Positions 6,567-26,980 of a DNA stretch of 64,000 nt are shown here, one piece after another. This DNA comes from Bifidobacterium pullorum DSM 20433 (GTDB lineage: Bacteria; Actinomycetota; Actinomycetes; Actinomycetales; Bifidobacteriaceae), in the NCBI RefSeq assembly GCF_000771405.1, contig NZ_JDUI01000001.1:124001-188000 (forward strand), read 5' to 3'. A program made the translations under genes and the position numbers. How positions within the stretch are numbered: the first letter of the stretch is position 1; the number at the start of each line of letters is the position of its first letter. The notes below the pieces were generated by a model, which saw nothing but the letters and a program-made list of their open reading frames with translations, ran no database searches and was not told the DNA's origin.

Positions 6567-6579
6567 CGTCGCTCTCCTC

Positions 6580-8160: not shown

Positions 8161-8239
8161 ATTCAGCCCTTCATCTGAACTTCCGTTGTGCCCTAATTCA
8201 AAGAATAGCCCATGTCTCTTTGCAAGAATGTACTCCTAG

Positions 8240-8797: not shown

Positions 8798-8891
8798 TTT
8801 GGTTGAGGCCTGAATGAAGGGACATGGTCCGTCGCCGGGGTACGATTTCAGTCGCCAAACATAAAACCGCTATGGAAAGAGGCGACGAACC

Positions 8892-8990
8892 ATGTCGAAC
8901 CAGATTCTACAGGTCGACGAGAACATGCTCGAGACGAAGCTGGACCGTCTCGTGTCCCGGAAGGTCGAGGAGCTGTTGAACGCGATGCTG
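8892..8990 (+). pseudogene. Transposase N-terminal fragment (IS256-like)
   Basis: Thirty-three codons beginning MSNQILQVDENMLETKLDRL read like the amino terminus of a mutator/IS256-type transposase, with GGCGACGAACC just before the ATG. Homology stops abruptly at about 8990-9000, where the sequence becomes the truncated IS3 element in the opposite orientation. The family assignment rests on a short stretch and is tentative. Confidence 0.4.
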
Positions 8991-8997
8991 GGCGCGA

Positions 8998-9620
8998 TAC
9001 CGCGGCAAGGAGACCATCGACTTCAGCGAATACCTCGGCCTCAGCCGGTCGACCGGCATCGTCTTCTCCCTGTTCGACAGGCGCCGCAGGTCGGCGCCCG
9101 GGTCTTTTTTTACGGCCCCGAACCGCCTCCCGCATCAACGCGTTCCCCCAACTCCAGCTCCCGTATCCGCCAACGCAGCACATCCGGGTCATCGCCCAGC
9201 AGTTCGTGCTCGGTTCCGGCCTGAGGCATGGCGTCCCTCCGTTCCGGTCTCCGGCGCCGCCATTCCGCCGGCGCGGTACAGTCTCATCCAATGATGCACC
9301 GCGCCGGTGCCGGCGCCAAGTTCTGCGGCCGCCTGCTTCCGCTGCATGCCGGACAGGCACAGCCCCACCGCGCGACGCCGCGTCCCCAACGGTACGGGAG
9401 GCTTGGGAACGACGTCGGCATACCGTGGATCGGCATGCAGCCACCGCTCCAGGCACTGCCTGGTCGGATACCCCAGATGCTCCACAACCTGCTTCGTGGA
9501 CATCGACGTCGTGAAATACAGCTCCACCGCCCGCTCGCGCTCCTCGCGACCGGACACGGCAACAATCCTTCCGCTCAGTCTCCAAGAAAACGTCCGCAGC
9601 CCCATGATTCTCTTGGATTC
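8998..9620 (-). pseudogene. Degraded IS3-family (IS150-like) OrfA plus truncated OrfB
   Basis: On the minus strand an IS3-type OrfA is visible, with helix-turn-helix units STKQVVEHLGYPTRQCLERW and [18 protein letters not shown], then the leucine-zipper segment [16 protein letters not shown]. Reading the whole of it needs at least two frame changes, one at a run of G (about 9146-9150). An A7 run (T7 at 9105-9111) has the form of the IS3 programmed -1 slippage site and leads into an OrfB start ([18 protein letters not shown]). OrfB stops after about 35 codons where it abuts the IS256-like piece. The element is dead. Confidence 0.6.
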
Positions 9621-9704
9621 GTTACCCTTTCCACGCATGTGCGACATGTTGAGACATCGCTGTTCCTTCACCAAAACGTCCGACACCAGCGTCACCTCCA
9701 TACG

Positions 9705-10364
9705 TCACACTTCTTTGAATATCTTCTTGAAGATAAGCTGCGTCATCACTTCGTCGAGCTGTTTCGCCGTATGTTCTGATTCAATCAATGCTCCAAGTTC
9801 AATGTTTCCCTGCTGCCCGTGGTATGAAAGGTTCGCGGAGGTTATCAGCGTCTGCCTCATATCCACGGAGATGACCTTGGCATGCAGAGCCGCCATCTTG
9901 TCTTCCGCATTGCTGTAGTCGTATATCTGAAGGAAGCGCCCCTTGTAGTGGAGCAGCTTGTCGACATCCGGCTGCTTCTCGACGTTGTTGATGAAGAACT
10001 TGACGAACACGCCTTTCTGGCTCTTGTCGATGATGGTGTCCGTCAATTCGGAGAAATATGAGGAAAGGGAGTATCCGGTTATCAGGATGTTCCTTTTCGC
10101 TCCTTCGAGCATTGACTGGACAACTGTCATCGTCGGCTTTGCATTGATTCTGAACGACGGCGGCGCGGTCACGACAAGAGAGACCTTCTCAGTGTTTTCC
10201 GTGGTCAGAGCAGCACAGATTGTCGCAGCTATTTCCTCGCAATCTACCGATGACAGGCCTGGGTATTGCCGGTGCAGGATGTCTGTGGCATTGTTGGTAC
10301 CGTTGGCTGCATCTGCCTTTATGGTATTCAGCAGTATTTCTCTTTTTAAATCTCCACCTGACAC
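9705..10364 (-). CDS. drmC: DrmC-like phospholipase D-domain protein (DISARM)
   Basis: This 219-aa protein has one PLD/HKD-type active site (H161, K163 and D168, followed by the ITSANLS segment with S176 and N178). DrmC is the PLD-family member of the DISARM core drmABC, and its position as last gene after drmB matches known loci. PLD proteins in this setting are thought to act on DNA or RNA backbones; the exact role of DrmC is not settled. Its start overlaps the 3' end of drmB by 19 nt. The GTG at 10364 is the only early start, without a strong ribosome site, so coupled translation is likely. Confidence 0.8.
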   Translation of the reverse strand: MSGGDLKREILLNTIKADAANGTNNATDILHRQYPGLSSVDCEEIAATICAALTTENTEKVSLVVTAPPSFRINAKPTMTVVQSMLEGAKRNILITGYSLSSYFSELTDTIIDKSQKGVFVKFFINNVEKQPDVDKLLHYKGRFLQIYDYSNAEDKMAALHAKVISVDMRQTLITSANLSYHGQQGNIELGALIESEHTAKQLDEVMTQLIFKKIFKEV

Positions 10365-12115
10365 AGCTCATTCACCAGCTCTCTGAAATACGATGTCTCT
10401 TCGCGTCCCGAAAGAGGAACCACGAGCCCCCGGTCAAGCATTCGATTCCCGTTCTCACATGCGGTTTCTGAAATCATGCAGCACGAATGGCATGCCGCGC
10501 CGTTGGAGTTCTTCCCGGCCGGGAGCGTGTTCATGCATTCCGGGTCGTTCGTGCATACAAGTGCCTCCTGGAACGCTTCCCTCATGAGGCTTGTCATCTG
10601 TTCTGCCGTACCGAGTTCCACGAGACCTCCGAGAGAGCCTTCCTTGTCGGAGCTTCCTGTATAGAGCAGAACGCCTGCCATCTTGTCGTCGAAGTATATT
10701 CTCTCCCTTATTGCTGAAGAGGAGTATCCCGACGACATGGCCATCTGCTTGATGAGAAGATGGGAGAAGGTATGCATGAGGACATAGACGGCGTTGCGAC
10801 CCGCCTTTATCGTCCATCCCTTTGATTCACAGTACTCCCTGTAGGAGGCGGCATATTTCTCTGAAATTTCTCTGGTCTTCGGCTCGGTCAGCCACTTTGC
10901 AAGCGTCTGCCTGTTGAATTCGATGAAGATTCCTTCGCCGTTTACCTCCACTGCAGGAAGCCATCGTTCATCCCTGCCTTTTGTCAGGTAGACGATATTC
11001 GGCTGTTCATCCGCATCCGGATCAGGAGCGTCAACCCGTGTGAAACCAAGAAGCACTCGCACCTCGCGCAGTCTTGTTACGCGGATGATCCGCTTGAAGT
11101 AGTGCTTGAAGTATTCGGGAAGAGCATCTTCCTCTGCTTTGAAATGCTTCTTGTTGGACTGATAGGTCGGATCATTGTGATGCGTGATGGCCTCATATTC
11201 CATCCGCTTGATTTCAGTGAATTCCTTGATGTTTTTCATGCGCCGCTCATAGGCAGCATCGAATTCATCACATGCATAATCAGAAAAATATTCTTCATAA
11301 ATCTGTTGAAGGCCTTCTTCTTCGCTGCGTCCGAATCTCACGGCCATCTTTTTCGCCTGTTCGATATCGCGAAGATGCTCATCTATCAGGTTGTACAGGG
11401 GGTTGATCCATGGCGGAATAGAAATGGCGCTTCTCGTCACGGCAAAATACACATTTGATGCACCGCGCTGAGACGGAATGACCGGTTTCTCGCAGTGTTC
11501 ACGTCTGGTGTGTGGTCTGAACGGATGCATGCCGCTGCACGACAGTCCCTCGAAGTTCCGGGCCTGCGTGGCTCCGCTCATGCTTCTTCTCGCACCGCAG
11601 GAGCACTCCACCCGCATATCTGACAGCGTGGATGTGTTTCCTGTTGAGTACATCCTCATTTCCCCTTTGCAGTCTGTATCTCCGCGATGAACCCACCAGC
11701 TCCAGGGGAAATCAGACATGTGTCCGTTTTCGCAAATTGTGATGAAACGGGCAGGATAAGCACGCCAGTGGCAGTCAGGGCAGTTAACGCTAAACTTCAG
11801 ATACTTGTCGAGATCATCGTTGATGATCCCTCTTGCATCAAAAAGCCTCCCGCACTTTGAGCAGACATGCCAGTAAGGAAAAGTCACAACCGGTATGTCA
11901 TGAGCAAAGGATGTCCTCGGCATATAGAAGGCATCCACATTCAGATAGGACGCAAGCCGTCCGTCTATGATTTTCTTTCCCCTGTCCTTCCAGTACGGGA
12001 TATCCAGAATGGTCACAGAGTCTTTCACTGCATCCACGACTGCCCCCGGTCCAAAAGTCGTGATGATTTGATTCGGGCGCAGCTCGCCAAGTTTGTTAAT
12101 GTCGTATCCGGCCAT
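10346..12115 (-). CDS. drmB: DrmB-like DUF1998 protein (DISARM)
   Basis: The 589-aa protein has an N-terminal zinc-ribbon-like region (C85, C88, C112 and C115 in HVCSKCGR and VNCPDCHW). A long helical middle leads to the DUF1998 region with LMHTFSHLLIKQMAMSSGYSSS and a terminal Cys-rich GAACHSCCM motif. DrmB is the helicase-associated DUF1998 partner of DrmA in DISARM; the DrmAB complex binds DNA and is thought to be autoinhibited until it meets phage DNA. The ATG at 12115 (MAGYDINKLG) has GGAGGAATG before it and lies 1 nt after the drmA stop. Confidence 0.87.
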   Translation of the reverse strand: MAGYDINKLGELRPNQIITTFGPGAVVDAVKDSVTILDIPYWKDRGKKIIDGRLASYLNVDAFYMPRTSFAHDIPVVTFPYWHVCSKCGRLFDARGIINDDLDKYLKFSVNCPDCHWRAYPARFITICENGHMSDFPWSWWVHRGDTDCKGEMRMYSTGNTSTLSDMRVECSCGARRSMSGATQARNFEGLSCSGMHPFRPHTRREHCEKPVIPSQRGASNVYFAVTRSAISIPPWINPLYNLIDEHLRDIEQAKKMAVRFGRSEEEGLQQIYEEYFSDYACDEFDAAYERRMKNIKEFTEIKRMEYEAITHHNDPTYQSNKKHFKAEEDALPEYFKHYFKRIIRVTRLREVRVLLGFTRVDAPDPDADEQPNIVYLTKGRDERWLPAVEVNGEGIFIEFNRQTLAKWLTEPKTREISEKYAASYREYCESKGWTIKAGRNAVYVLMHTFSHLLIKQMAMSSGYSSSAIRERIYFDDKMAGVLLYTGSSDKEGSLGGLVELGTAEQMTSLMREAFQEALVCTNDPECMNTLPAGKNSNGAACHSCCMISETACENGNRMLDRGLVVPLSGREETSYFRELVNELCQVEI

Positions 12116-12116
12116 A

Positions 12117-15100
12117 TCATTCCTCCGTGTAATAGTACATATTTGCAGCGCTTTCCACGTCACGCATTGACCGCAGGGTAGGCTTCTCATTCTCGATATG
12201 AGGCTGCTCATATCCGTTCATAAGCCTGTTGTACTTTTCCGTTCTCACAACGTAATAGCGAAGAGGCTTGTCCTGTGATGCCAGCAACTTCCATTCGTCG
12301 ATGAATTTGTCAATCTCTTCGCTCGCATCAGCTATTGCGGAAGGCTTGACGATTTTTACCCGTTCAAGAATCATTTCCTTCACTGCATCGATTTGATTCT
12401 GTGACAGAGAATTTATTGCCACAGCATCCTTGTTATCAGCCATTTCCGGGTACAGAAGCCTTATCGCAGAAATGACAAGTGCATGCAGAACACGGTCGCG
12501 CGCCCTTGCAGAGAACGGAGTGGCCGTTGTTCCTTCCACGAATCTGTAGAGCTGTGCGTGGTATCCGGTGAAATTCTCGTAATGAGACAAGTCGCGCGGC
12601 CGGTATGCGTTGTACAGCGTCACGACAAGACCCGGATGAGCACGCCCGATACGGCTTGTCGCCTGGATGTATTCGGAGTTCTGTTTTGGCTGACCCGACA
12701 CGACCATAAGACCAAGACGATCCACATCCATGCCGACCGCAATCATATTCGTTGCAACTGCCGTGTCCATATGATCCTTTGCGGTATAGGGCAGCTCAAG
12801 CTGGTTGAGTTTTTCTGGTATTTTCCAGGACGACATACGCGATGTTATCTCATCGTTCTTATTCAGATATCTGAGCTTTTCGAGATGGTACCTCTTCCGA
12901 ATGCGCTTTATTCTGGCGGGAATATCATCCTGCAGAAGGCGTACCGCACCACCGAGTTCACGTATGCTGTTGAAATATCCGATCAGGGTGTAGTACGGAT
13001 CGATGACATCCTTGTATTCATCCTGCAGGGAATATGTATAGACCGCTTGCAGAATAATGGCATAAGTTCTCAGCAAGGCTGTTTTCACAGACTGCCCGGG
13101 GGCACAGATTCCGACATACTTTCTGAACGGGTCTTCCTCAACCGGAATCTCGCGTATGAAGAAGCTGTCGCCGATCTCAAAGCCGTTCGGCGGGAACTGC
13201 TTCGTTGTCTTTCTGGCATACAGGCACTTCGCTTGGTTGTCTGCATTCTTGATTGTGGCCGTGGAGACCACGTACTTCGGTTTGATTCCATCATGCGTGC
13301 ACATGTCCTCGATGATGGTCTCATACGCACCATAGACGGTCCCAAGAGGCCCTGTGATCAGATGAAGCTCATCCTGAATGATAAGCTCCGGTGGGAGAAA
13401 CGGCTTCACCTGCGTAATCTCTGCAGCAGGAAGACCGGATGTCCTCCTGTGTTTCGGATGTTGTTCTGCACCAATCGCAACATATCCGTCACGGCTGCAC
13501 TTGCGATCAATTCTTCCGAACAGAGCGTTTGTGCTCACGTCCCACGGCAGTCTCGCGAACTTGTCGACTGTTGACAGGATGATGGTCGGGCATTTAGCGT
13601 AGATTTCCTCGTCCACCAGGTATACCGGAATCGGGATGCGTTCCCCGGTCTTTGGGTATTTATAGAACATGCAGTGTTCGTCCGAGCAGTAGATTTCCAC
13701 GGACTTCCTGTCCGGGTCAATATAAAACTCTTCCTCTGTAAGCTTCTTGCCGCAGAACGGACAGGTAAGAAGCTGCTTATAAAGCAGTTTCTTCTGATTT
13801 CCTGCCTGGTAAGGTCTTTCCGGATTTTCCTTCAGATCATCAAATCTGTTCGGAGTCACACTGCCTCCGACCCAGAAACCGATGCTGATGGGTTCCGTAC
13901 CGTACTTCGGATAATTCTTCTGTCTTACAAGCTCGGCGGCAACGACCATTTTCGTGATGCGGTCACGCTGCTGCGTTGTCAGAAGACGAAGTGTGTACCG
14001 GAGGATGATGGTCACCCCGCCGTCACGGTTATATTTGTCAGATTCGGAAGCACGAAGGCGTCTGTTGGCGATGGTAAAGGCCATGAGTCCGAGATAGGCC
14101 TCCGTCTTTCCACCGCCGGTCGGGAAGTAAAGCAGGTCGACGACGTCCCGCTCCGGATCTTCCGGGTGGACGATTCCCTTCAGATTCATCAGGATAAAGG
14201 CTATCTGGAACGGCCTCCAGGCGAATTCATTCTTTGGATTCATAGGATTAGTAAAATCCTTGAAATTGCATTCAATGCCCTTACCGTGCTTCTTCGAATA
14301 GTTCTTTATGCTGTTCTGCATAAAGATGATGCTATTCATGAAAATGAACGCCTCGAATGCGATGTCGTCCGTCTCGATGATCTGAATGCCTTCCCGTATT
14401 CTTCGCAATGCGTCCCGACAGTGTCCGATGACGGTATTCCCGATACTCTCCGCGAACCTCGGATCATTCATCCGAAAGCTTCCTGCGAGCGTGTCGTCAA
14501 TCCACTGTTCATATGAATCGGCGAGCGTGTTCAGCCTCAGTATGGTTTCTGATTTCCTGCCCTTTGCCGCCATCTGCCATGTTGAAAAGTATGTGGGTGA
14601 GAATCCTTTGAGAGCGGCACTGACGCCTGGATACTCGTATTCCGGGATAAATGCGGATTCCACATAGTCCGTACGGCCGTTCCCGGTCTTACCCCATACG
14701 GCGGCACAACCTCTGCCACGTCCCATGATCGGTCGCTGCTCGAAATAGAACTCGTCAGTTGCAAGAACATGCCTGCAGATGTGTTCCGCGATGAAGACCG
14801 CAGAGCCATCCTCGGCATGGGCCTTGATTCCGACCTGAAACATCAGGCCCTCGATGTCACTTGAGGGATTGCTCCGCTTGTTCACGACATAGGCGGTGAC
14901 GAGGGAATACCCGTTCTTCAACGGAATGCGGGATACATGGACGTGAACGTTCGAATCCTTTATGAGCGGGTAGTCCTTTGTACGTCCGAAGTCGCTGAAC
15001 TTCACATGCACGGTTTCGCTCTCGGGGATTCTCTTGTAGATCGGGCGACTGCGTTCCTTTTCTTCCTTGTCAATGTACTTTTCAGTTGATTTCGTATAAT

Positions 15101-15446
15101 CGCCCCAGGTTACATCTAGGCAGATGCCGTCGAGGCTGTTTTCCACATAGAAGCTGATGCCGATGGATGACGGAAGCTGGAATTTCGTAGTGGATATCGG
15201 CTCGTTGTCGTCATCCTCACCAGCAGTGAAGTCCTCGTTCTTTTCGTAGTCGACGTCCGCTTCGATTTCCTGTTCGTTCTCGTCCGGCACATTCTCGTCG
15301 CGCTGCGGCTCGAGCATGCCGACGATATAGGCATAGCGTGGATTCTCGTCCAGAACCTCCTCCGGAGAAAGCGGACCGATCAGATCGGTTCTGATTGCGT
15401 CTATGATTTTCCACCGGACCTCGGCGTACTTGAATCTGTCAGGCAT
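12117..15446 (-). CDS. drmA: DrmA-like superfamily II helicase (DISARM)
   Basis: The 1109-aa helicase has an acidic N-terminal extension (about residues 45-85), Walker A FPTGGGKT (441-448), and a four-cysteine insert (C562, C565, C587, C592). The DELH Walker B motif is at 692-695 and the motif VI segment is QATSRIGRAHPG. This matches DrmA, the large DISARM helicase that pairs with DrmB. All helicase motifs are intact. The start overlaps the stop of the type III Res gene by one base (TAATG) with AGGAGG upstream, so translation is coupled. Base composition is clearly more A+T-rich than the flanking chromosome, consistent with horizontal acquisition. Confidence 0.88.
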   Translation of the reverse strand: MPDRFKYAEVRWKIIDAIRTDLIGPLSPEEVLDENPRYAYIVGMLEPQRDENVPDENEQEIEADVDYEKNEDFTAGEDDDNEPISTTKFQLPSSIGISFYVENSLDGICLDVTWGDYTKSTEKYIDKEEKERSRPIYKRIPESETVHVKFSDFGRTKDYPLIKDSNVHVHVSRIPLKNGYSLVTAYVVNKRSNPSSDIEGLMFQVGIKAHAEDGSAVFIAEHICRHVLATDEFYFEQRPIMGRGRGCAAVWGKTGNGRTDYVESAFIPEYEYPGVSAALKGFSPTYFSTWQMAAKGRKSETILRLNTLADSYEQWIDDTLAGSFRMNDPRFAESIGNTVIGHCRDALRRIREGIQIIETDDIAFEAFIFMNSIIFMQNSIKNYSKKHGKGIECNFKDFTNPMNPKNEFAWRPFQIAFILMNLKGIVHPEDPERDVVDLLYFPTGGGKTEAYLGLMAFTIANRRLRASESDKYNRDGGVTIILRYTLRLLTTQQRDRITKMVVAAELVRQKNYPKYGTEPISIGFWVGGSVTPNRFDDLKENPERPYQAGNQKKLLYKQLLTCPFCGKKLTEEEFYIDPDRKSVEIYCSDEHCMFYKYPKTGERIPIPVYLVDEEIYAKCPTIILSTVDKFARLPWDVSTNALFGRIDRKCSRDGYVAIGAEQHPKHRRTSGLPAAEITQVKPFLPPELIIQDELHLITGPLGTVYGAYETIIEDMCTHDGIKPKYVVSTATIKNADNQAKCLYARKTTKQFPPNGFEIGDSFFIREIPVEEDPFRKYVGICAPGQSVKTALLRTYAIILQAVYTYSLQDEYKDVIDPYYTLIGYFNSIRELGGAVRLLQDDIPARIKRIRKRYHLEKLRYLNKNDEITSRMSSWKIPEKLNQLELPYTAKDHMDTAVATNMIAVGMDVDRLGLMVVSGQPKQNSEYIQATSRIGRAHPGLVVTLYNAYRPRDLSHYENFTGYHAQLYRFVEGTTATPFSARARDRVLHALVISAIRLLYPEMADNKDAVAINSLSQNQIDAVKEMILERVKIVKPSAIADASEEIDKFIDEWKLLASQDKPLRYYVVRTEKYNRLMNGYEQPHIENEKPTLRSMRDVESAANMYYYTEE

Positions 15447-18103
15447 TAGTCCTCCTCCTTTATCGGATGAGCTGTTCCGAGCGTGTATTTGCAGGTGTTT
15501 CCGGGATGAATGTTGTCATCGGAGATGAGCCGGTACTCCCATGTCTTGTGGTCGGGATCGGCCGTTGTGGCGAAAGTGCACCACCTGATGCCTTCGCGCG
15601 CCTTGGAAACAACCTCTTCGTTGTTCACTTCATTGAGCGCCTTGACCTCGACCATGTATTTCCCGGTCGTCGTCTCCACGAGAAAATCAGGGTTGTACTG
15701 CTGACCGGCTTTCCAGAACAGGCCGAGCTGGTTCAGCGGCGGCTTGATCCAGCGAATCACGTCCGGATCCTCCTCCAAGATGATGGAGAAGAGCCTCTCC
15801 GTGTCACTGTCGAAGGCATTCGCCGGATAGTACGACTTCTTGTAGCCTGTGAAGAGATACTTCTTTATGTTGCTCTTGTCCGTGAACGGCTTGTCGTAGC
15901 GCACCTGTCCGTCCTTCTTCACGCTCTTGACGAACTTGCGGAAGACGATGAGATCCTTCTGGACGATGTGGACGTCCTGCGTCTTTCTGTCCATGTGTGC
16001 GTAAATCTGTTTTTTGATATCGTTCACAATCAACCCGGCATAGCGGCGGACGATTTTCTTCTTTTCCTCCTCGTCTCCGGGTATCTGAGCAAGGTACTGT
16101 TCCACAACGTCGATGATGAAGTCGGCGTCGTCGTAGGAAAGCTCGCTGATGGAATCGAGCAGCATGCATGCCAGAGTGTTCCTGGCATCCTCGACCTCGA
16201 GCGCCTGCGCGTCCACAACCGTCAGAAGGTGCTGGTTGATTGCATCGAAGCGCTCGATCTTTGCTGTGGCAACCTCGAAGTCCTGTATGGTCCGCTTCAC
16301 TTCAAAGCGGTTGAACTTCACCTCGGAAGTCGTCTGTACGAGGATCTTCGGCACAGATATGGCTTTCGCCGAGTATTCCGTAACCGTCTTCGTGAATTCC
16401 TCCTGCGTCATCGGGCGCTTGCCGGTCTGCGTATCCGGTGTCGTCGAGACAGTGTCAGTACCGGAGCTCTGTGGTCCGGGAGTTTCCCCGGTCTGCATGG
16501 CTTCCGGTGCTACGTCAAAAAGACTTAGCTGGTTGGGATTATCGGACTTCCTGTTCTTCTGCTGCGAGGCCATGAAGTTCTTGACGTATGCCTGATAGAT
16601 TTCAAGCTGTGTCTGCGGATTGCGCACCTGGTCAAAGGACTTGATCCCGGCGGATGTGATGGCCTCGTCGACGAACGAAAGCTGTCCCTCCTCGAAGGTG
16701 CTCGATATGTCCACGGACTCCGAGTCCTCAACACCGGACTTGTCCAGATCACGATAGCGGAAGATGTCACTGTTCCTGATTTCATCAACAAGCTCCCGGT
16801 AGTGGTCGTGCGCCACGATATCGAGCGTGTCCAGATCCTCGTTGCCGGTCTGCTCACCGAACGGGAGACGCAGGCCGCGCCCGATGGTCTGCATGGCGAG
16901 GATGTCGCTCTTAGCGGCGTTGAGCGGGATGATGGTGAACAGGTTGTTGACATCCCAGCCTTCCTTCAGCTTGTAGACGTGCAGAACGATTTCTATCGGG
17001 TTTGCCGCGCTCTCGATGGAGAGAAGAAGCCGGACGTTCTTCTCAGATTCCTCGCCGGTCTGCTTCGAGTGGATCTCGATAACTTTTCCCTTGTACTTTC
17101 CATTCATGAAATCATCGCTGTCTATCAGAGCGCGGATTTTCTTCGCATGATCCGTGTCCTTGCAGGCTATAAGTACGATCGGTTTCACATAGTCGAGCTC
17201 ATTGTTGGCGCAGTATTCCCGAAGAACGGTCTTCCGGTGCTCGTGCAGTGTGAGTCCGTCGCGGATCTTCATCTCCTCAATATCGTCCTGACTGTATCCG
17301 GCGATGTTGGAGCGTCCCATGACAACCGGAATCTTCAGATATCCTTCGGCGGCTCCTCGCGCCACGTCATACGAGTAGATGACGTTCGACAGAGACTTCG
17401 GCGTGGCCGTGAATTCCAGTCCGAGAATCGGCCGCAGATAGTTGATTGCCTTCATGGACGCAGGAGCATAATAATGGTGTGCCTCGTCCATGCAGATGAC
17501 GAGGTCGTCGAACTGCGCGAGCACGTCTGCGAAGGATGCGCCGAGCGTCTCCTTGAACTTGTGGAAGTTGAACTGCGTGTCGGTCTTGCTGTTAAAGATC
17601 TTCCCGATGTTGAAGATGAAAAGCTGGATCTCCGACGCATGGTCGACGAACAAGGTGCCGTTCTTATACTTGACCGGGTACTGGTCGTAGTTCTCGCCAT
17701 CCCAGACGAGCGGCCTGCCCATCTCAGCCTCAAGCCCCTTGAAGATGTACTTCGGATGTGCAGGATTGGATTCCTTGCGCAGCTTATCGTAGATGGTATT
17801 TCCGGGCGCGAGGATGAAGAAGTGCTTATATCCCTTCGTCTTGTACAGATAGTAGATGCAGGCTCCCATCAGGCGTGTCTTGCCGATACCTGTGGCCATG
17901 GCGTAGCAGAATGACGGGAAGTGGAACTTCGACCGAACCTTCCTGTTGTTCTCACTGTATTCGGACGCAGCGGCCTCCACAGTTTCCTTGCCGTCACGTT
18001 TGTAGTCGCAGTGCGTGCTGATAGCATCGAGATAAGAGAGAGCTTCCTCCTGCGGCATCCTCAGGCTCATGGCGTATTTGATTTTCGATACTGTTCCCGA
18101 CAT
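15446..18103 (-). CDS. Type III restriction-type helicase/endonuclease (Res)
   Basis: The 885-aa protein has a superfamily II helicase core with Walker A ATGIGKT (70-76) and DEAH (206-209), a motif VI QTIGRGLRLPFG, and a C-terminal PD-(D/E)XK nuclease. The catalytic residues D806 (NPDFLVE), E819 and K821 (VEVKA) are present. This is the architecture of the Res subunit of type III restriction enzymes. It is inserted between a Mod-like methylase (start and stop adjacent at 18103/18104) and drmA. It could form a classical Mod/Res pair or act as the nuclease arm of the DISARM complex. I do not recall Res as part of the described DISARM types. Confidence 0.85.
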   Translation of the reverse strand: MSGTVSKIKYAMSLRMPQEEALSYLDAISTHCDYKRDGKETVEAAASEYSENNRKVRSKFHFPSFCYAMATGIGKTRLMGACIYYLYKTKGYKHFFILAPGNTIYDKLRKESNPAHPKYIFKGLEAEMGRPLVWDGENYDQYPVKYKNGTLFVDHASEIQLFIFNIGKIFNSKTDTQFNFHKFKETLGASFADVLAQFDDLVICMDEAHHYYAPASMKAINYLRPILGLEFTATPKSLSNVIYSYDVARGAAEGYLKIPVVMGRSNIAGYSQDDIEEMKIRDGLTLHEHRKTVLREYCANNELDYVKPIVLIACKDTDHAKKIRALIDSDDFMNGKYKGKVIEIHSKQTGEESEKNVRLLLSIESAANPIEIVLHVYKLKEGWDVNNLFTIIPLNAAKSDILAMQTIGRGLRLPFGEQTGNEDLDTLDIVAHDHYRELVDEIRNSDIFRYRDLDKSGVEDSESVDISSTFEEGQLSFVDEAITSAGIKSFDQVRNPQTQLEIYQAYVKNFMASQQKNRKSDNPNQLSLFDVAPEAMQTGETPGPQSSGTDTVSTTPDTQTGKRPMTQEEFTKTVTEYSAKAISVPKILVQTTSEVKFNRFEVKRTIQDFEVATAKIERFDAINQHLLTVVDAQALEVEDARNTLACMLLDSISELSYDDADFIIDVVEQYLAQIPGDEEEKKKIVRRYAGLIVNDIKKQIYAHMDRKTQDVHIVQKDLIVFRKFVKSVKKDGQVRYDKPFTDKSNIKKYLFTGYKKSYYPANAFDSDTERLFSIILEEDPDVIRWIKPPLNQLGLFWKAGQQYNPDFLVETTTGKYMVEVKALNEVNNEEVVSKAREGIRWCTFATTADPDHKTWEYRLISDDNIHPGNTCKYTLGTAHPIKEED

Positions 18104-19723
18104 TTACCGCACCTCGCTTTCAAAATTGCACTTGTCCAGGAGATCCTTCGGAATCTTCTTCACCTCGATGTTGTCCGGCAGAATCATGTCCGACTGGATC
18201 TTCGTCGCGTAAATCAGGAGAGACTGCCCCTCGTCGAGGTGCTGTGACAAAGAGCGGATGTATTCCGCGTTCACGAACTCCGTGGTCACATGGATGAACC
18301 GCTTCTCCGACGAATGGCCGTGGAAGACGTCCTGTGGCTTGTACTTGAAGCCTTCGATCTTGCAGATCGCCTCACACAGCATCTCGAACGTGTAGGTCGG
18401 GTTGATCTGGTAGACCGGCAGCTTGTCGTTCTTCACGAGCAGGCTCGGCGCAAGCTCATAGAAGTGGTATCCGCCGCCACCCTCCCAGTTCACAGCCTTG
18501 GAGATGCCACTTGTATCTGTATCATCAATAACAGAGTCTAACCTTTTCTTACAGTGCGTATAGGCCTGCTCACCCATTTCAATCCCAATCCATCTGCGGT
18601 TCATTTTATGAGCGACTGCAGCTGTTGTCCCTGATCCAAGGAATGAATCAAGAACCCAGTCGCTCTCATCAGTACTCAATTCAAGAATTCTTTTTATGAG
18701 GTGTTCTGGTTTTTTTGCCTTTGGAAAATTCACATTTCCTTCATTATGTAAATTATTCGAAAGAATATCATCCCAAAGCGTTGTTAATGGTTCAGCTGTA
18801 GTCAATTGTCCATCAATAACTTTCATCTTGTCTTTGTAAAACAGGAGGCGTTCCCCATTAACAAAAAACATATCTGGCGCGTTATCTCTTTGCAAATAAA
18901 AGATTTCACCAGGGCTACCTTTTGATTCCTGCACTACATTCTGAATCTCTTTTCCGACACTTTTTAAATCAGGTCTTGCAGTACGCACAACGGACTCAGC
19001 ATGACTCTCAACAAATTCATCAACAAGCGAGGGATTCTGCTTCGCAATTTTACGTGCTCCCTTTACATCAACCTTTTGATCAGATGCAAAGGCTTCCATT
19101 AACGTGCAGAATCTCCAATTATGATAGTCTTCAGTTGCATTAACAATGAATTTACCATATCGGTTATCTCTTCCACGTTTTATAAAAACTCTGTTTGGAT
19201 TCCAATAATCTTTATTCTTTGAATATATCAGAATAAAGTTTGTAGTTGTGACGCATCCGGGGTTAATTGCCTTGTGACCTGTTGCCGCTCCCTGCTTAAA
19301 TGTAATTAAATAAAGTCGGTTCTTTCTTTCAAATATTTCATCCATGACCAGCGTCAGGTATGGTAAATACGAATCGTCAATGTGAACAAAAATGGTGCCA
19401 TCATCTCTTAATAACTCATGAAGAAGAACCAGTCTTTTTCTCATCAAATTCAGCCAGATTGACATTTCCAGATTATCGTCATAGTTCTCGAAAGCCTGGC
19501 CGGTGTTAAAAGGCGGATCGATGTATATGCACTTGATCTTCCCAGCAAAGTCCTGTTGCAGCGCCTGAAGTGCAATCAGGTTGTCTCCGTGAATCAGCAT
19601 GTTCTCACTGTCTGGATCGCCGTAGGATTTCTCCGGATCCTCAAGGAGTATGCGCGGTTCGACTGGCTTCTCCTCATCGTATTTGCCGACCCATGTCAAC
19701 TCGAGTTTTCCTTTTTTCTGCAT
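18104..19723 (-). CDS. Type III Mod-like adenine-specific DNA methyltransferase
   Basis: This 539-aa methylase is of the beta class: motif IV DPPF at 69-72 precedes the SAM-binding motif I FLGSGTT at 361-367. That order is usual for type III Mod proteins, which make N6-methyladenine. The recognition domain lies between, and its specificity cannot be read from sequence. In this operon it occupies the slot of DrmMI, the adenine methylase of class 1 DISARM. TAGGAG lies before the ATG and overlaps the stop of the helicase gene upstream. The central third (about 18.5-19.3 kb) is especially A+T-rich, as is common for exchanged target-recognition domains. Confidence 0.87.
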   Translation of the reverse strand: MQKKGKLELTWVGKYDEEKPVEPRILLEDPEKSYGDPDSENMLIHGDNLIALQALQQDFAGKIKCIYIDPPFNTGQAFENYDDNLEMSIWLNLMRKRLVLLHELLRDDGTIFVHIDDSYLPYLTLVMDEIFERKNRLYLITFKQGAATGHKAINPGCVTTTNFILIYSKNKDYWNPNRVFIKRGRDNRYGKFIVNATEDYHNWRFCTLMEAFASDQKVDVKGARKIAKQNPSLVDEFVESHAESVVRTARPDLKSVGKEIQNVVQESKGSPGEIFYLQRDNAPDMFFVNGERLLFYKDKMKVIDGQLTTAEPLTTLWDDILSNNLHNEGNVNFPKAKKPEHLIKRILELSTDESDWVLDSFLGSGTTAAVAHKMNRRWIGIEMGEQAYTHCKKRLDSVIDDTDTSGISKAVNWEGGGGYHFYELAPSLLVKNDKLPVYQINPTYTFEMLCEAICKIEGFKYKPQDVFHGHSSEKRFIHVTTEFVNAEYIRSLSQHLDEGQSLLIYATKIQSDMILPDNIEVKKIPKDLLDKCNFESEVR

Positions 19724-19734
19724 GACTATATCTC

Positions 19735-22371
19735 CTAAAACTTCAGTACGACGCTGATCAGAAGGATGGGGTTGTCAATCTCAAGGCTGGCGTTGAACGT
19801 CTTGATTTCCTGGTCGCCCTCGGCTCTGAACCTGGTGTCACGTTCGTGGAATGACGCCTGGAAGGCCCCGAGCTTCTTTTCCTTTTGCTCCGCCTTTTTC
19901 CTGATGTCTATCTTTTCGTAGAAATTGTTCGAGGCTCTTTCCTGTTCACGGAGTTCCTCGATTTCCGCGCTCATCTCTTGGTACTGCACGACAAGCTGTT
20001 CGTTCTGGATGCGTATCCAGTTCTCGATCTTGCGCCGGTTGTATTCCCGTACCGGTTCCGACTGTCTGTCGAGCTTGTCCAGCATCTCTGAGACGAGGTT
20101 TTGGTACGTTCTCTGGAACAGAGCGTTTTCCTCATCCGTCGGCGTGAAGTATCGCACATTGGAGTCGTCGATTTTCTCCAGTTCCGGCACAAGGTCGTCC
20201 TCTTCGAAGTCGACATACCTGCCCTCGTGGTCGCACATAAGAAGCACGGGGAAGAGGATGTCCGCATTGTTGCACATCGCACCGAGGAACAGGTATCCTC
20301 GTGCCCCGATGTTCTGTTCACCCCAGCCGTCGACTTTCCAGTACTGGACATCCCTGAACACCTCCGACTGCGCGACTTTGCTCCAATAGTCGACCTGCTG
20401 TAGGTAGCGGTCGATGTCCTTCTTCGTGCCTTCGAGTGCCTGCTTCTTTGCGCCGCTGCTTTCCGTGACTAAGATGTCGCGGAGTTTCTGCGTCTTCTTG
20501 TCGCGCTTCGCATCCAGCTTTCTGTTCAGCTTGTTGAACTCTTTCTTGAATTCAGCAGCTGTGTCGCATCGCTGATAGATGTCCAACACCGTCTTCTCGA
20601 AGCTCGTGCCGGATTCCAGAGCTCCGATTGCAATGTCGGAAGCTCCGAATACACCCTCGAAAAGCTTGAACTTCTCCGAGAGTATCTCGTAGACACGCTT
20701 GTCAGCCTCGTTCTGCGTGTTCAGCAGGTTGATGGCGACCACGTCGTTCTGCTGCCCGTAGCGATGGCAGCGGCCGATTCGCTGCTCGATCTTCATCGGG
20801 TTCCACGGCAGGTCGTAGTTGATGACTGTGTTGCAAAACTGCAGGTTCAGGCCTTCCGAGCCGGCGTCGGTGCATATGAGTATCTTCGCATTCTCTTTAA
20901 AATAGTCGACGATGGCGTGCTTGTATTCGACGCTTCTCCCGTAGTTCGCGTTTCCATAGTTCTTCGCCTGCCATGCTTGGTATATTTCCTTCGACATGGC
21001 ATCGTCGAATCCTCCGTTAAACAGGAGGATGTCTTCCTCACTGTACCCGGATTTCCTGAGTTCTTCGGCGATGTATTTCTGTGTCCGTTTCGACTCAGTG
21101 AACACAACGGCTTTCTGCGCAATGCCGTGATCCCGCTGGTATGAGAAGCAGATCTCAAGCGCCTGCCTCAACGCAGTGACCTTGGAGTTCGTCTGGATGC
21201 GTTTTGCCACATCGATGATGGCGTTGACCTCGTCCAGCTCCGCCTGGATGTATGCCTTCTGCGTCGCGGTGCCCTCGTTCTCGGTTTCCTCGAAGCCGGA
21301 TTCGTCAATCTCGTCCTCGACGAAGCTCCAGAACAGGTCGAAGCCCTCCTGTGCGTCAGCAGACTTCGTGCCCTCATACAGCTTCTCGAGCCGCTTCTTC
21401 AGCACCTCAAAGGTATCAATAAGGGCGAAGCTGGATGAAGCCATGAGCTTGCGGATGACCAGGATGATCAGCGCCCGGTTGGATGTCGGAATGGAATACA
21501 GGACATCCCGCTTGAGGAACAGGTTGACCCGCTCGTAAAGATCAATCTCGTCCCGTGACAGTTCGAAGTCGACGGTCTTGCAGATCCTCTTCACGAAATG
21601 CATGTAGTCCGCCACATCTTTTCGCAGCGTCCTGTACAGCACCGGCATGAGTTCCCGCTTGAGGTCGTCGTAATTCTCATCCTTTATGTAACGCTGCCGG
21701 AACACCTGCTCCGAACCGAAGATTCGCGGATCAATGAAGGAGATAAGCCCGTACAGGTCCATGAGTGAGTTCTGCAGAGGTGTTGCTGTCAGGAGAATCT
21801 TCGGTATCCCGCCGGAAAGCTCGTACAGCCGCTTTGCACGCTTCGTACCGCTCAGGTTGCGCAGGTTGTGCGCCTCATCGATGATGAGGAAGTCCCATTT
21901 CACATCAGGGAATCGTTTCATCAGCTTCGACGAGTAATCGTAGGAGGTGATGACAATCCGGACACTCTGCCTGTCAGCGAGCTCCTTATGCCAGTCCTCC
22001 GCATCATGTTCGACCGTGAGTCTGTCGAGAATCACGGATTTCAGGTCGAACTTGTCCTCGAGCTCCAGCTCCCACTGCTTGCGGAGAGACGCAGGGAGCG
22101 CAATCAGAACTTTCTTCGCTCCGGACTCCAGCATGTAGCGCAGGACGAGCCCCGCCTCGATCGTCTTGCCGAGTCCGACCTCGTCAGCAAGCACCATGCC
22201 GCCCGTCTTCATCGCGTCGATGGCAGCGCAGAATGCATTGATCTGGTGAGGATTCGGATCGATATGAGATTCGGACGGAAGGAGGAAATGGAATGGTGAT
22301 TTCCCCAGCTCCATGCGTTTGAACCTGCCGTACTGCCCGAGAAGCAGGTTTCTGCTTTCACTGCTGTCCAT
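19735..22371 (-). CDS. drmD: SNF2-family helicase (DrmD-like)
   Basis: The 878-aa SNF2/RapA-type ATPase has Walker A GLGKT (66-70) and DEAH (165-168). The C-terminal RecA lobe carries SEGLNLQFCNTVINYDLPWNP and motif VI QRIGRCHRYGQ. A long charged coiled-coil region follows (about residues 600-840). DrmD is the SNF2 helicase of class 1 DISARM, and its position next to the adenine methylase and upstream of drmAB fits. Its start overlaps the end of the cytosine methylase gene by 14 nt, so the two are translationally linked. Confidence 0.82.
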   Translation of the reverse strand: MDSSESRNLLLGQYGRFKRMELGKSPFHFLLPSESHIDPNPHQINAFCAAIDAMKTGGMVLADEVGLGKTIEAGLVLRYMLESGAKKVLIALPASLRKQWELELEDKFDLKSVILDRLTVEHDAEDWHKELADRQSVRIVITSYDYSSKLMKRFPDVKWDFLIIDEAHNLRNLSGTKRAKRLYELSGGIPKILLTATPLQNSLMDLYGLISFIDPRIFGSEQVFRQRYIKDENYDDLKRELMPVLYRTLRKDVADYMHFVKRICKTVDFELSRDEIDLYERVNLFLKRDVLYSIPTSNRALIILVIRKLMASSSFALIDTFEVLKKRLEKLYEGTKSADAQEGFDLFWSFVEDEIDESGFEETENEGTATQKAYIQAELDEVNAIIDVAKRIQTNSKVTALRQALEICFSYQRDHGIAQKAVVFTESKRTQKYIAEELRKSGYSEEDILLFNGGFDDAMSKEIYQAWQAKNYGNANYGRSVEYKHAIVDYFKENAKILICTDAGSEGLNLQFCNTVINYDLPWNPMKIEQRIGRCHRYGQQNDVVAINLLNTQNEADKRVYEILSEKFKLFEGVFGASDIAIGALESGTSFEKTVLDIYQRCDTAAEFKKEFNKLNRKLDAKRDKKTQKLRDILVTESSGAKKQALEGTKKDIDRYLQQVDYWSKVAQSEVFRDVQYWKVDGWGEQNIGARGYLFLGAMCNNADILFPVLLMCDHEGRYVDFEEDDLVPELEKIDDSNVRYFTPTDEENALFQRTYQNLVSEMLDKLDRQSEPVREYNRRKIENWIRIQNEQLVVQYQEMSAEIEELREQERASNNFYEKIDIRKKAEQKEKKLGAFQASFHERDTRFRAEGDQEIKTFNASLEIDNPILLISVVLKF

Positions 22372-23647
22372 CTGTATCTTCCCAGTGAAGCTGTGCGAAG
22401 ATTCCCTCGGCGATACCTCTTGCCATCAAAGGAGGTACGGCGTTACCGATCTGCACGAACTGCGATGTGCGCGGTCCCTCAAAGTAGTAGCTGTCCGGGA
22501 ATGACTGTATGCGCGCCGCTTCCCGCACCGTGATAGAGCGGTGCTGCCGGATGTCAGGATGGATGAAGTAGTGACCGTCCTTGGAAAGGTGTGCCAGTAT
22601 CGTGTGACAGCAGTGTTCGTCTCCTTCGACCACCTTGAAACGGTCAGTGAAGGAATATCGGTTTTTGTGTGTCTTGAGTTCCTCCGGCAAGTCGTTGTAG
22701 TTTAGCCTCTTGTGCCCGTCATTCCACAGTTCTATGGCTCTCTCGTATATCTTTACGTCACGCTCGATGTTCGGCCGAGAGTTCTGGAGAGTAAGGACAT
22801 CATCTTTCGTCCGGATGCCAGTTTCTGTCACATAACTACTTGGCTTCTTCTTCGAGTACGTGTTTTCGCTCTCACCGGGATGGAGCTCTGGAAGATCTGT
22901 AAACAGATCATTCACCACGGCATCCGTTTCCTTCCTGATGAAGTCCGGGTATGCAAGACCGCTGTTCTTCAGCCAACCGACGATAATCATCCTACGTCTG
23001 TTCTGAAGCACACCGAAGGTCTGTGCGTTCTGCTCATGACACTCGATTTCGTATCCGACACGCTTGAGGTACTTTTGTAGGTTTTTCCAGATGACTCCCC
23101 CCTGTGCGGACTCGATACCAATCACGTTCTCGAAAACAAACATACGCGGCTGATATTTCTTGAGGAAGCGTGCATAGAGCTTATACAGGTAATTTCGCGG
23201 ATCATCCTTCATCGGAACTTCCATGTGACTGCTCTGAGCTCTGCCGACAAGGGAGTATGCCTGACACGGCGGCCCGCCGACAATCACATCTACCTTTTCG
23301 ATTCCGCGTATTTTCATGATGCCATCGATAGTCCCGAAAACAGCAAGGAGAGTTTCATCGGACAGCGTCTCATTGATAACTGTTTTTGTGATGGAAGATG
23401 GAATCTGCTTCATGAACTCGTCACGGCTGGTCTTCCCGGAGAGGTATTCCCTGTAAAGGGCGAGGTTACCCGTGTTCTTCAGATAGTAGTATGCGCTACG
23501 GGTTTCAAGTGTCTTTGCGGCATACTTATTCATCTCGACATGTGCAACCGGCTGAAAGCCTGCCTGCAGGAACCCCTCTGACAGGCCTCCCGCTCCAGCG
23601 AAGAGGTCTATGAAATTATAGCTGCTCTGTTCATCCGCTTGCGGCAT
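22358..23647 (-). CDS. drmMII: C5-cytosine DNA methyltransferase (DrmMII/Dcm-like)
   Basis: The 429-aa protein has the C5-methylase motifs in order: motif I FIDLFAGAGGLSEGF (about 12-26), motif IV GGPPCQAYS with catalytic C128, motif VI FENV, motif VIII QNRRRM, and motif X QIGNAVPP near the end. It methylates cytosine at an unknown sequence to mark host DNA. In class 2 DISARM the methylase DrmMII is of this type. Here it is the first gene of an operon that also has an adenine methylase, which is unusual. The ATG at 23647 follows AGAGGAAG, and a good promoter lies at 23681-23709. Confidence 0.85.
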   Translation of the reverse strand: MPQADEQSSYNFIDLFAGAGGLSEGFLQAGFQPVAHVEMNKYAAKTLETRSAYYYLKNTGNLALYREYLSGKTSRDEFMKQIPSSITKTVINETLSDETLLAVFGTIDGIMKIRGIEKVDVIVGGPPCQAYSLVGRAQSSHMEVPMKDDPRNYLYKLYARFLKKYQPRMFVFENVIGIESAQGGVIWKNLQKYLKRVGYEIECHEQNAQTFGVLQNRRRMIIVGWLKNSGLAYPDFIRKETDAVVNDLFTDLPELHPGESENTYSKKKPSSYVTETGIRTKDDVLTLQNSRPNIERDVKIYERAIELWNDGHKRLNYNDLPEELKTHKNRYSFTDRFKVVEGDEHCCHTILAHLSKDGHYFIHPDIRQHRSITVREAARIQSFPDSYYFEGPRTSQFVQIGNAVPPLMARGIAEGIFAQLHWEDTDGQQ

Positions 23648-23776: not shown

Positions 23777-25174
23777 GGCTCTTGTGTTGTTTTCGTGGGT
23801 GGTGGCTCGTCGTTGAGCCGTTGAATACGAAGGTGTGAGGGGCGCTTCCTGTAGGTTTGTTTTTCGACCAAGAATACAACCGAGGAAAGCGCCTTGGTTG
23901 AAGAGCATATTCAAGCGATTGCCGAACGTCAAAGACATGATGGTCGAGGACGTGTCGTTGGACGACTCCCCGCTACGCGACGCGCCCGTCCTGGTGGCGC
24001 GCGTCAGGTGCGGGAAGGGAGCGTTGCGCTGCTCGCGCTGCGGGCGAAAGGCCCCGAGATACGACAACGGCGGGGGCGGGCGAAGCTGGCGGCACCAGGA
24101 CTTCGGTTGCTTCCGCGTCGAGCTTTCCGGCCCGGTCCCGCGAGTGGAATGCCGTCCGCACGGCGTGGTGGTCTCCCGGGTGCCGTGGGCCGAGCCGGGC
24201 AGCCGGTTCACCCGCGACTTCGAATCCGAGTGCGCATGGCTGATGACGGTCGCCGGCCAGAAGACCGTGAGCGGTTTCCCGCATATCGCGTGGAGGACCG
24301 CCGGCGACATCGCCAGACGGGTCGCCGGCCGGCTGGAGTCCTCGATGCCGTGCATGTTCGACGGGTTGCACGCGATCGGTGTGGACGAGACCAGCCGCAG
24401 GAAGGGCCACGCGTACATCACCGTCATCGTCGACCACGGGCGCGGACGCGTGATCCGGGCGCACGACGGGCACGGCAGACAGGTCCTCGACCTGTTCTTC
24501 CGACAACTGACGCCGGAGCGGCGCGCGTCGATCCGGATCGTGACCGGCGACGGGGCCGGATGGATCGACTCGTCCGTGGCCGAGCACCGCCCGAACGCCG
24601 AACGCGTGCTCGACTCGTTCCACATCGTCTCCTGGATGACCGACGCGCTCGACCGGGTCGGGAAACGGTTGTGGAACCAGGCCAGGCGCGACGGGAACAA
24701 AACGGCGACCGAGGCGATGCGCGGCGTCGAATACGCCGTGCCCAGGAACCCCGGCGACCTGACCGAACGCCAATCCACGGACCTCGCCACACTCGCCGAC
24801 GCGGATCCCAAGGCCAGCCCTACCGCTCGTGGCAGCTCAGGGAACTCCTGCGCACGCTCCTGCGCCAGCCCGTCGAACGGGCCGAAGCGGAACTCAAACG
24901 ATGGATCGGCCGGGCGTCACGCTGCCGCATCCCCGAGATCGTCGAACCATGCGGGAAGATCCGCAGACGCCGCGACGACATCCTCACAACCATCAGGCTC
25001 GGCTGTTCCAACGCCGGGATCGAAGCGTTCAACAACAAGATCAAGGTCACCATCCGCATGGCCTACGGCTCCCGCGACACGGACAACCTCATCGCCATGA
25101 TCAAACTCAGATGCTCAGGACCACCCATCCACCTGCCAACACCCATCCTCTAACCCACGAAAACAGCAGAAGCC
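23777..25174 (+). mobile_element. ISL3-family insertion sequence
   Basis: The element is bounded by imperfect inverted repeats that begin GGCT and end in GTTTTCGTGGGT on the inner side. Left copy is about 23777-23800 and right copy about 25153-25174; the inner 20 positions match at 18. It contains one transposase gene in the plus direction. The flanking octamers agree at only 5 of 8 positions, so there is no clean target duplication and one end may have rearranged. It marks the right edge of the defence island. Confidence 0.75.
23898..25153 (+). pseudogene. ISL3-family transposase, frameshifted
   Basis: The reading frame starts near a TTG at 23898 (LKSIFKRLPNVKDMMVEDV). It has the zinc-binding CSRCGRKAPRYD region, the helix-turn-helix, and the DDE domain (GVDETSRRKGHAYITVI, VTGDGAGWI). 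At about 24811-24813 one G appears missing (AAGGCC where AAGGGCC restores the frame), and the rest continues in another frame as QPYRSWQLRELLR through NNKIKVTIRMAYG, including the final catalytic Glu region (CSNAGIEAFNNK). Without ribosomal frameshifting the transposase would lose its last catalytic residue, so the copy is probably immobile. Confidence 0.75.
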
Positions 25175-26924: not shown

Positions 26925-26980
26925 GATGGTGGCTCCTTTCGTTGTGTTCGGTTGTTCCTGCCGACGCCCGTGACCCTCCG

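What the first reader, a model, noticed from the sequence alone, without database searches (positions are those of the whole stretch)
9705..23647. DISARM-type operon carrying both a C5-cytosine and an adenine methylase
Seven co-directional genes with start/stop overlaps or gaps of at most 11 nt: C5 methylase, SNF2 helicase, Mod-like N6-adenine methylase, Res, DrmA, DrmB, DrmC. In the described types, class 1 has DrmD with an adenine methylase, and class 2 has DrmE with the C5 methylase DrmMII. This locus combines class 1 helicase and both methylases, and DrmE is absent. As I recall, the class 1 methylase usually carries DUF1156, not seen here. This looks like a hybrid or third architecture.
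Basis: partly seen in the sequence, partly recalled or inferred. Interest (0 to 1): 0.85.

Follow-up and report, generated by a model that had tools for sequence, protein, structure and literature searches.

The report
DISARM operon with embedded type III restriction
A gut bacterium carries an anti-phage DISARM operon into which a complete helicase-plus-type III restriction cassette with an exchangeable DNA-recognition part has been built; this is a recurrent architecture that fits neither of the two catalogued DISARM types, though its core parts are known.

Summary
In detail: seven co-directional minus-strand genes, DrmMII, an SNF2 helicase, type III Mod, Res, DrmA, DrmB, DrmC, all with intact motifs. 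It is a genuine, recurrent architecture. The same order runs through 22 other genomes (Bacillota, Bifidobacterium, Spirochaetota), and four more match as far as the held DNA reaches.

It fits neither published PADLOC type: DrmE is absent, and the adenine methylase is not DrmMI but an EcoP15I-like Mod beside its own Res nuclease.

The helicase scores far above the DrmD_b cut-off but far below the class 1 DrmD cut-off. In trees it groups with SNF2 helicases of a cassette, SNF2-Mod-Res, found without any DISARM gene on plasmids and chromosomes. So this is a DISARM core (MII-A-B-C) carrying a helicase/type III R-M cassette.

Res, helicase and DrmA diverged together (r about 0.9). The Mod recognition domain has been exchanged freely (r about -0.04). 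Mod-Res is absent or decayed in at least three lineages that keep the rest.

Most likely it works as two-layer restriction: sequence-specific type III cutting plus DrmAB/DrmC processing, with both methylases marking self. That mechanism is inferred. Verdict: new variant of a known kind.

The parts
22358..23647 (-). DrmMII, C5-cytosine DNA methyltransferase (429 aa)
   Evidence: PDLC02649 DrmMII 557 bits, PF00145; GGPPCQ, ENV, GNAV invariant in 32 homologs
19735..22371 (-). SNF2-like helicase 'DrmD_b' (878 aa), helicase of the SNF2-Mod-Res cassette
   Evidence: NF038318 1524 bits, cut-off 950; tree groups it with DISARM-free cassette helicases, apart from class 1 DrmD
18104..19723 (-). Type III Mod, N6-adenine methyltransferase (539 aa)
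   Evidence: PDLC03636 479 bits; nearest solved chains 6k0w Mod and EcoP15I Mod 4zcf; DPPF and SFLGSGTT motifs; no DrmMI match
18661..19398 (-). Exchangeable target-recognition region of Mod
   Evidence: DNA similarity to B. thermophilum L005 and viral contig L160 breaks here; GC 37% against 50-54% in the other six genes; aa 125-325 about 20% identical between loci and uncorrelated with the rest
15446..18103 (-). Type III Res, ATP-dependent endonuclease (885 aa)
   Evidence: PDLC03648 410 bits, PF04851, EcoP15I Res 4zcf_C; Walker A, DEAHH and C-terminal PD...E-x-K conserved in 26 homologs
12117..15446 (-). DrmA helicase (1109 aa)
   Evidence: NF038325 1277 bits, cut-off 950; aligns with solved DrmA 7s9v from residue 142 on, trigger-loop region included
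10346..12115 (-). DrmB, DUF1998/MZB protein (about 589 aa; ORF opens at 12211)
   Evidence: NF038324 596 bits, cut-off 240; 7s9v_B from residue 40; zinc-binding cysteines invariant; start ATG 12115
9705..10364 (-). DrmC, PLD-family nuclease (219 aa)
   Evidence: PDLC02616 313 bits, PF13091, HAKVISVD (HxKx4D) motif conserved; NF038319 below cut-off
9585..9701 (-). 5' remnant of a vsr (T:G mismatch endonuclease) gene, cut by IS3-like DNA
   Evidence: first 39 aa 56% identical to the intact Vsr that follows drmC in L171

Best explanation
It is a DISARM operon of a third architecture: a DISARM core (DrmMII, DrmA, DrmB, DrmC) that has incorporated a complete SNF2 helicase-Mod-Res cassette, a kind of type III restriction-modification unit that also exists on its own. 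Shown from sequence: the seven-gene architecture, its recurrence, its modular origin, intact active-site motifs, co-divergence of cassette and core, exchange of the Mod recognition domain, and absence of Mod-Res in some lineages. Inferred: Mod methylates adenines at a short site set by its recognition domain, and Res with Mod cuts unmodified phage DNA in an ATP-dependent way. DrmMII adds m5C marks; DrmAB senses unmodified DNA with 5' single-stranded ends, unwinds it and, with DrmC, destroys it. The SNF2 helicase remodels or translocates on DNA for one or both layers; it stays when Mod-Res is lost, so it probably also serves the DISARM core. Exchange of the recognition domain would let the host change the targeted site while keeping the rest of the machine.
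For: Same seven-gene order in 22 other genomes, and four more (L026, L027, L029, L035) in order as far as the held flank reaches, plus two complete operons in IMG/VR contigs. SNF2-Mod-Res without M2/A/B/C in L152, L153, L155 and plasmids L164, L167, L168, L170. Helicase trees place the window with these cassettes, not with class 1 DrmD. Res, D, M2, A and B divergences correlate (r 0.84-0.98; Mantel Res~A r 0.90, p 0.0005), TRD does not (r -0.04, p 0.67). L007 and L014 share a 97% identical TRD with 81% identical D, while L021 and L031 share 98-99% Res and D but a 15% TRD. Mod-Res absent in L024, L030 and L034 and decayed in L006, with M2-D-A (and B-C where visible) kept. All motifs intact. The mechanism of each part follows EcoP15I (PMC4490356) and DrmAB (PMC9142583).
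Against: No phage or methylation assay. Physical contact between the Res/Mod and DrmAB layers is untested. DrmAB needs a 5' overhang of at least 7 nt (PMC9142583), whereas type III enzymes leave only short overhangs (own knowledge), so direct hand-over of ends is not established. Loss of Mod-Res in several lineages shows that the layers can part. Helicase and DrmAB trees have no true outgroup and some long branches.
Confidence: 0.65

Rival explanations
1. Nested but independent systems: an ordinary type III R-M unit happens to sit inside a DISARM operon and works separately, sharing only transcription.
For: SNF2-Mod-Res stands alone elsewhere; Mod-Res is missing in L024, L030, L034 and decayed in L006 while the rest stays.
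Against: Fixed position and order in every locus that has it; Mod-Res and Res-DrmA junctions abut or overlap; Res forms one clade in the DISARM context (homologs outside it at most 37% identical) and co-diverges with DrmA (r 0.90).
Confidence: 0.22
2. It is simply class 1 DISARM with a substituted adenine methylase, DrmD being the ordinary class 1 helicase.
For: NCBIfam and PADLOC both label the helicase DrmD; the DrmAB tree places the new clade nearest class 1.
Against: NF038317 class 1 DrmD 261 bits against a cut-off of 610; identity to class 1 DrmD 23-28%, to cassette helicases 39-44%; trees; no DrmMI; Res has no class 1 counterpart in PADLOC's definition.
Confidence: 0.07
3. The operon is decaying or silent cargo of a mobile element (low GC, flanking IS, vsr cut by an IS) and no longer defends.
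For: GC about 52% against 65% around it; ISL3 and IS3-like sequences on either side; vsr remnant.
Against: All seven frames open with catalytic motifs intact; only vsr, outside the seven, is broken.
Confidence: 0.06

Closest known systems
DISARM class 1 (PADLOC DISARM type I)
   Same: DrmA, DrmB, DrmC in the same order; an SNF2 helicase and an adenine methylase upstream of DrmA; no DrmE
   Different: helicase is DrmD_b, not class 1 DrmD; methylase is a type III Mod with separate Res, not MmeI-like DrmMI; adds DrmMII; DrmA lacks the N-terminal ~140 aa of the solved class 1 DrmA
DISARM class 2 (PADLOC DISARM type II)
   Same: DrmA, DrmB and a DrmMII of the same PADLOC model (PDLC02649), 51% identical in L148; some class 2 loci also have vsr beside DrmMII
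   Different: no DrmE and no NERD/UvrD helicase; has SNF2 helicase, Mod, Res and DrmC
Type III R-M (EcoP15I)
   Same: Mod with N6_N4_Mtase motifs and a central recognition domain; Res with helicase motor and C-terminal PD-(D/E)xK nuclease; adjacent genes
   Different: preceded by an SNF2 helicase and embedded in a DISARM operon; Res only weakly similar to EcoP15I (E 2e-7)
Stand-alone SNF2-Mod-Res cassette (no name found)
   Same: same three genes, same order in most, helicase 39-44% and Res 32-35% identical
   Different: no DISARM genes nearby; helicase C-terminus differs (match covers about residues 33-660)

Membership tests
DISARM (any) | DrmA helicase and DrmB DUF1998 protein, adjacent | tested here: met
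   NF038325 and NF038324 above cut-offs; solved DrmA/DrmB align over nearly full length
DISARM (any) | PLD nuclease DrmC after DrmB | tested here: met
   PDLC02616 over full length, HxKx4D present; NCBIfam DrmC_I below its cut-off
DISARM (any) | anti-phage activity | not testable with these tools
   needs infection assays
DISARM class 1 (PADLOC type I: A, B, C, D, MI; no E) | DrmD | tested here: inconclusive
   matches DrmD_b models (NF038318, PDLC02619) but not the class 1 DrmD model NF038317 (261 of 610 bits), and trees separate it from class 1 DrmD
DISARM class 1 (PADLOC type I: A, B, C, D, MI; no E) | DrmMI adenine methylase | tested here: not met
   no match to PDLC02643 in the genome at E 0.001; no DrmMI among the best 25 PADLOC families of Mod; other DrmMI models not run one by one
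DISARM class 1 (PADLOC type I: A, B, C, D, MI; no E) | DrmE absent | tested here: met
   PDLC02636 finds nothing in the genome
DISARM class 2 (PADLOC type II: A, B, C, E, MII) | DrmMII C5 methylase | tested here: met
   PDLC02649 557 bits
DISARM class 2 (PADLOC type II: A, B, C, E, MII) | DrmE | tested here: not met
   absent from this genome and from eight genomes checked that carry relatives of the operon
Type III restriction-modification | Mod (beta-type amino-methyltransferase) next to Res (SF2 motor plus PD-(D/E)xK) | tested here: met
Type III restriction-modification | ATP-dependent cutting between inversely oriented sites, hemi-methylation | not testable with these tools
   biochemistry required

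The most novel reading that the evidence does not exclude
SNF2-Mod-Res is an undescribed, widespread helicase-assisted type III defence cassette, and DISARM is a modular core that recruits such SNF2-plus-R-M cassettes (SNF2 + MmeI-like methylase in class 1, SNF2 + Mod + Res here). The two layers are functionally coupled: sequence-programmable type III cutting feeds sequence-blind DrmAB destruction.
Probability: 0.3. Interest if true: 0.78.

Novelty: new variant of a known kind. Interest (0 to 1): 0.58.

Why it matters
DISARM is described as two classes with one SNF2 helicase or DrmE and one methylase each. This locus shows a third, recurrent build in which a complete type III restriction cassette with its own helicase is wired between the DISARM methylase and the DrmABC core. 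It has travelled as a unit through at least three phyla and onto phage-like contigs. It makes two open questions testable. First, how does DISARM, whose DrmAB is largely sequence-blind, get sequence information? Here an exchangeable Mod recognition domain would supply it. Second, what does the SNF2 helicase do? It can be compared between the DISARM-bound and the free cassettes. It also shows that the name DrmD covers two distinct helicase lineages, which matters for defence-system annotation tools.

Tried and rejected
1) Mod as a DrmMI variant: rejected; no match to PDLC02643 in the genome, while true class 1 methylases score 1400-1700 bits.

2) DrmD_b as the ordinary class 1 DrmD: rejected on scores and trees, with the caveat of no true outgroup.

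3) Mod-Res as a recent chance insertion: rejected; Res forms one clade that co-diverges with D and DrmA.

4) Whether the five-gene form without Mod-Res is the ancestral state: not favoured. L024/L030 and L034 are nested inside clades whose other members carry Mod-Res, and L006 keeps a Res remnant, so secondary loss is simpler; the trees are not rooted, so this is not proved.

5) DrmE searches in Actinomycetota and in a clostridial sample gave no usable class 2 reference; Bacilli did (L148-L150).

6) The idea that Res-made ends are direct DrmAB substrates: kept only as a hypothesis, because DrmAB needs a 5' overhang of at least 7 nt.

7) Promoter and terminator scans were not above shuffled expectation for promoters (12 against 9.9 +/- 3.1) and only modestly for terminators: not used.

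Ofir et al. 2018, which defined the classes, is not held, so the class definitions rest on PADLOC and Bravo et al.

9) Structure prediction was not run: solved relatives for DrmA, DrmB, Mod and (weakly) Res answered the questions asked.
Full report
What is there. On the minus strand of the window, from 23647 down to 9705, seven genes run in one direction: DrmMII, an SNF2-type helicase, a type III Mod, a type III Res, DrmA, DrmB and DrmC. Profile searches give each an unambiguous family. Adjacent genes overlap or are separated by at most 11 nt, once DrmB is started at 12115 instead of the mechanical 12211. Catalytic motifs are intact and essentially invariant across homologs: PCQ of the C5 methylase, DEAH and Walker A of the helicases, DPP(F/Y) and FLGSGTT of Mod, Walker A, DEAH and the C-terminal PD...ExK of Res, HxKx4D of DrmC, and the DrmB cysteine pairs. 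The block has about 50-54% GC (44% in Mod) inside a chromosome of about 65%. Its DNA similarity to relatives begins at 23658 and ends near 9690-9753, with an ISL3 transposase upstream and IS3-like DNA downstream, so it was acquired as a unit. The host is a Bifidobacterium: a same-genus genome carries a helicase identical in sequence to that of B. thermophilum DSM 20210.

It recurs. A scan of one genome per species found 470 stretches encoding relatives of the helicase; the best were read. Among them, 22 genomes have all seven genes in the same order, and four more are in order as far as the held flank reaches. They come from Lachnospiraceae, Oscillospiraceae, Erysipelotrichaceae and other Clostridia, Bifidobacterium, and Treponema/Spirochaetia. 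In L008 the Mod and Res frames are interrupted. Two complete operons lie in IMG/VR viral contigs. Within the window's genus it is rare: 2 of 112 genomes pass the DrmD_b cut-off.

It is not class 1 and not class 2. PADLOC requires DrmA, B, C, D and MI without E for type I, and DrmA, B, C, E and MII for type II (PMC9252829). Here DrmE is absent and DrmMI is absent by the main model. Class 1 methylases fetched for comparison are MmeI-like proteins of 1340-1480 aa that match DrmMI at 1400-1700 bits. A class 2 operon fetched from Bacilli reads DrmE, NERD/UvrD-like helicase, DrmA, DrmB, DrmMII. Its DrmMII is 51% identical to the window's, and both best match the same PADLOC DrmMII model. In a DrmA+DrmB tree class 1, class 2 and this architecture form three separate groups, the new one lying nearer class 1 (quick method, some long branches).

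The helicase is the surprise. NCBIfam already holds a model DISARM_DrmD_b that fits it (1524 bits, cut-off 950), so the family has been noticed by curators. But against the class 1 DrmD model it scores 261 with a cut-off of 610. A search with the window's Res in Clostridia found stand-alone homologs of at most 37% identity. In three of these neighbourhoods (L152, L153, L155) a helicase 39-43% identical to DrmD_b stands directly before Mod and Res, with no DrmA, DrmB, DrmC or DrmMII. The same SNF2-Mod-Res group was found on plasmids of Paracoccus, Ketogulonicigenium, Sphingopyxis and Roseomonas. Looser versions, with extra genes, another order or more distant Mod and Res, occur in Rhizobium, Conchiformibius and a planctomycete. 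In trees the window's helicase and its relatives group with these cassette helicases and apart from class 1 DrmD (quick, with other SNF2 relatives in between; careful, 100/100 for the branch separating class 1). The reading is therefore that a DISARM core of DrmMII and DrmABC has taken up an SNF2-Mod-Res cassette. I found no paper in the held library that names this cassette or this architecture. One paper mentions an unspecified 'DISARM-RM hybrid cluster' in Fervidacidithiobacillus caldus (PMC12375680).

The parts have stayed together, except one. Across 23 loci the pairwise identities of M2, D, Res, A and B correlate at 0.84-0.98. Res against DrmA gives r 0.90, Mantel p 0.0005. Res in DISARM loci forms one clade. 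The exception is the middle of Mod, residues about 125-325, the expected target-recognition domain. Mean identity between loci there is 20%, while the flanks of Mod are conserved. Its identities do not correlate with DrmA (r -0.04, p 0.67), whereas those of the Mod flanks do (r 0.83). Near-identical operons carry unrelated domains (L021/L031: Res 98%, TRD 15%; window/L005: Res 96%, TRD 12%), and diverged operons share one (L007/L014: TRD 97%, D 81%). At DNA level similarity to L005 stops at 19398 and resumes at 18661, and that segment has 37% GC. Allelic exchange of Mod recognition domains is known for type III systems such as ModS of Streptococcus suis (found as PMC8125046); finding it inside a DISARM operon is the new point.

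Mod-Res is separable. L024 and L030 have M2-D-A-B-C; L034 has M2-D-A before its contig ends; B. indicum (L006) lacks Mod and keeps only a Res remnant. These lie inside clades that otherwise carry Mod-Res, which suggests loss. The helicase is kept in all of them, which suggests that it also serves the DISARM core.

How it most likely works. Established for relatives: type III Mod methylates one strand of an asymmetric site and Mod-Res cuts between inversely oriented unmodified sites using ATP (EcoP15I, PMC4490356). DrmAB is held off by a trigger loop and activated by 5' single-stranded ends, less so on m5C-methylated DNA (PMC9142583). The window DrmA aligns across the trigger-loop region (Serratia residues 176-232) but lacks the first ~140 residues of that protein. 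Bell et al. report an EVE-like domain at the N-terminus of class 1 DrmA (PMC12458937); I did not test that its absence here is the absence of that domain. Inferred for this locus: two layers, a sequence-programmable type III cut and a sequence-blind DrmAB/DrmC attack, with m6A and m5C as self marks and the SNF2 helicase as a DNA motor for one or both. Against a simple hand-over, DrmAB needs at least a 7-nt 5' overhang, longer than type III ends are known to be (own knowledge); resection would be required. The chief rival is that the two layers are nested but independent.

Surroundings. Directly after drmC lie the first 39 codons of a vsr gene cut by IS3-like DNA; the intact gene follows drmC in the close relative L171 and also in L030. 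Two Bacilli class 2 loci and two class 1 loci also have vsr next to or near a C5 methylase, which fits repair of deaminated m5C. The nearest relatives by helicase sequence (L004, L158, L160; 95%) lie beside phage replication genes (Sak4-like annealing protein, DNA helicase, Gam-like protein) and an ABC-3C pair. The operon is therefore at least partly carried by phage-like elements.

Verdict. New variant of a known kind; the functional coupling of the two layers is untested.

Noticed in passing
window 9585-9701 and 8848-9701: 5' remnant of a vsr mismatch endonuclease gene directly after drmC, cut by IS3-like sequence; intact vsr follows drmC in L171 and L030.
   Followed up: partly
L160/L004/L158 1-8700, L009 735-8426, L017 1779-5000: Close relatives of the operon lie beside temperate-phage replication genes (Sak4-like, helicase, Gam-like, phrog_2698); in all but L017 an ABC-3C pair (CTD11, DUF2326) stands just upstream of drmMII, suggesting phage-borne DISARM.
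   Followed up: partly
L152:3208-10492, L155:7982-15499, L164:8833-17255, L167:4321-11835, L168:2716-11661, L170:4439-11835: Stand-alone SNF2 helicase-Mod-Res cassettes without DISARM genes, mostly on plasmids; annotated only as SNF2-related protein, methyltransferase and DEAD/DEAH helicase.
   Followed up: partly
L027:12646-14418, L029:12620-14605, L026:12633-13208: Extra genes between the helicase and Mod in deep relatives: AAA_15/AAA_21 OLD-like ATPases (590 and 661 aa) and a 191-aa protein without Pfam match.
   Followed up: no
L157:9201-11369: A single 722-aa frame matches DrmD_b at its N-terminal side and Res over its C-terminal part: possible helicase-Res fusion.
   Followed up: no
window 23835-25153: ISL3-family transposase upstream of the operon, split between two frames (frameshifted).
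   Followed up: no
window 4656-8797: Low-GC minus-strand genes downstream of the operon: DUF3427 fragment (8240-8797), TerB-like protein (5709-6566) and two proteins (6580-8160, 4656-5645) without a significant Pfam match.
   Followed up: no
window 25936-27982: LMW phosphatase/ArsR fusion next to an ArsP-family permease: an arsenic-response pair beside the island.
   Followed up: no
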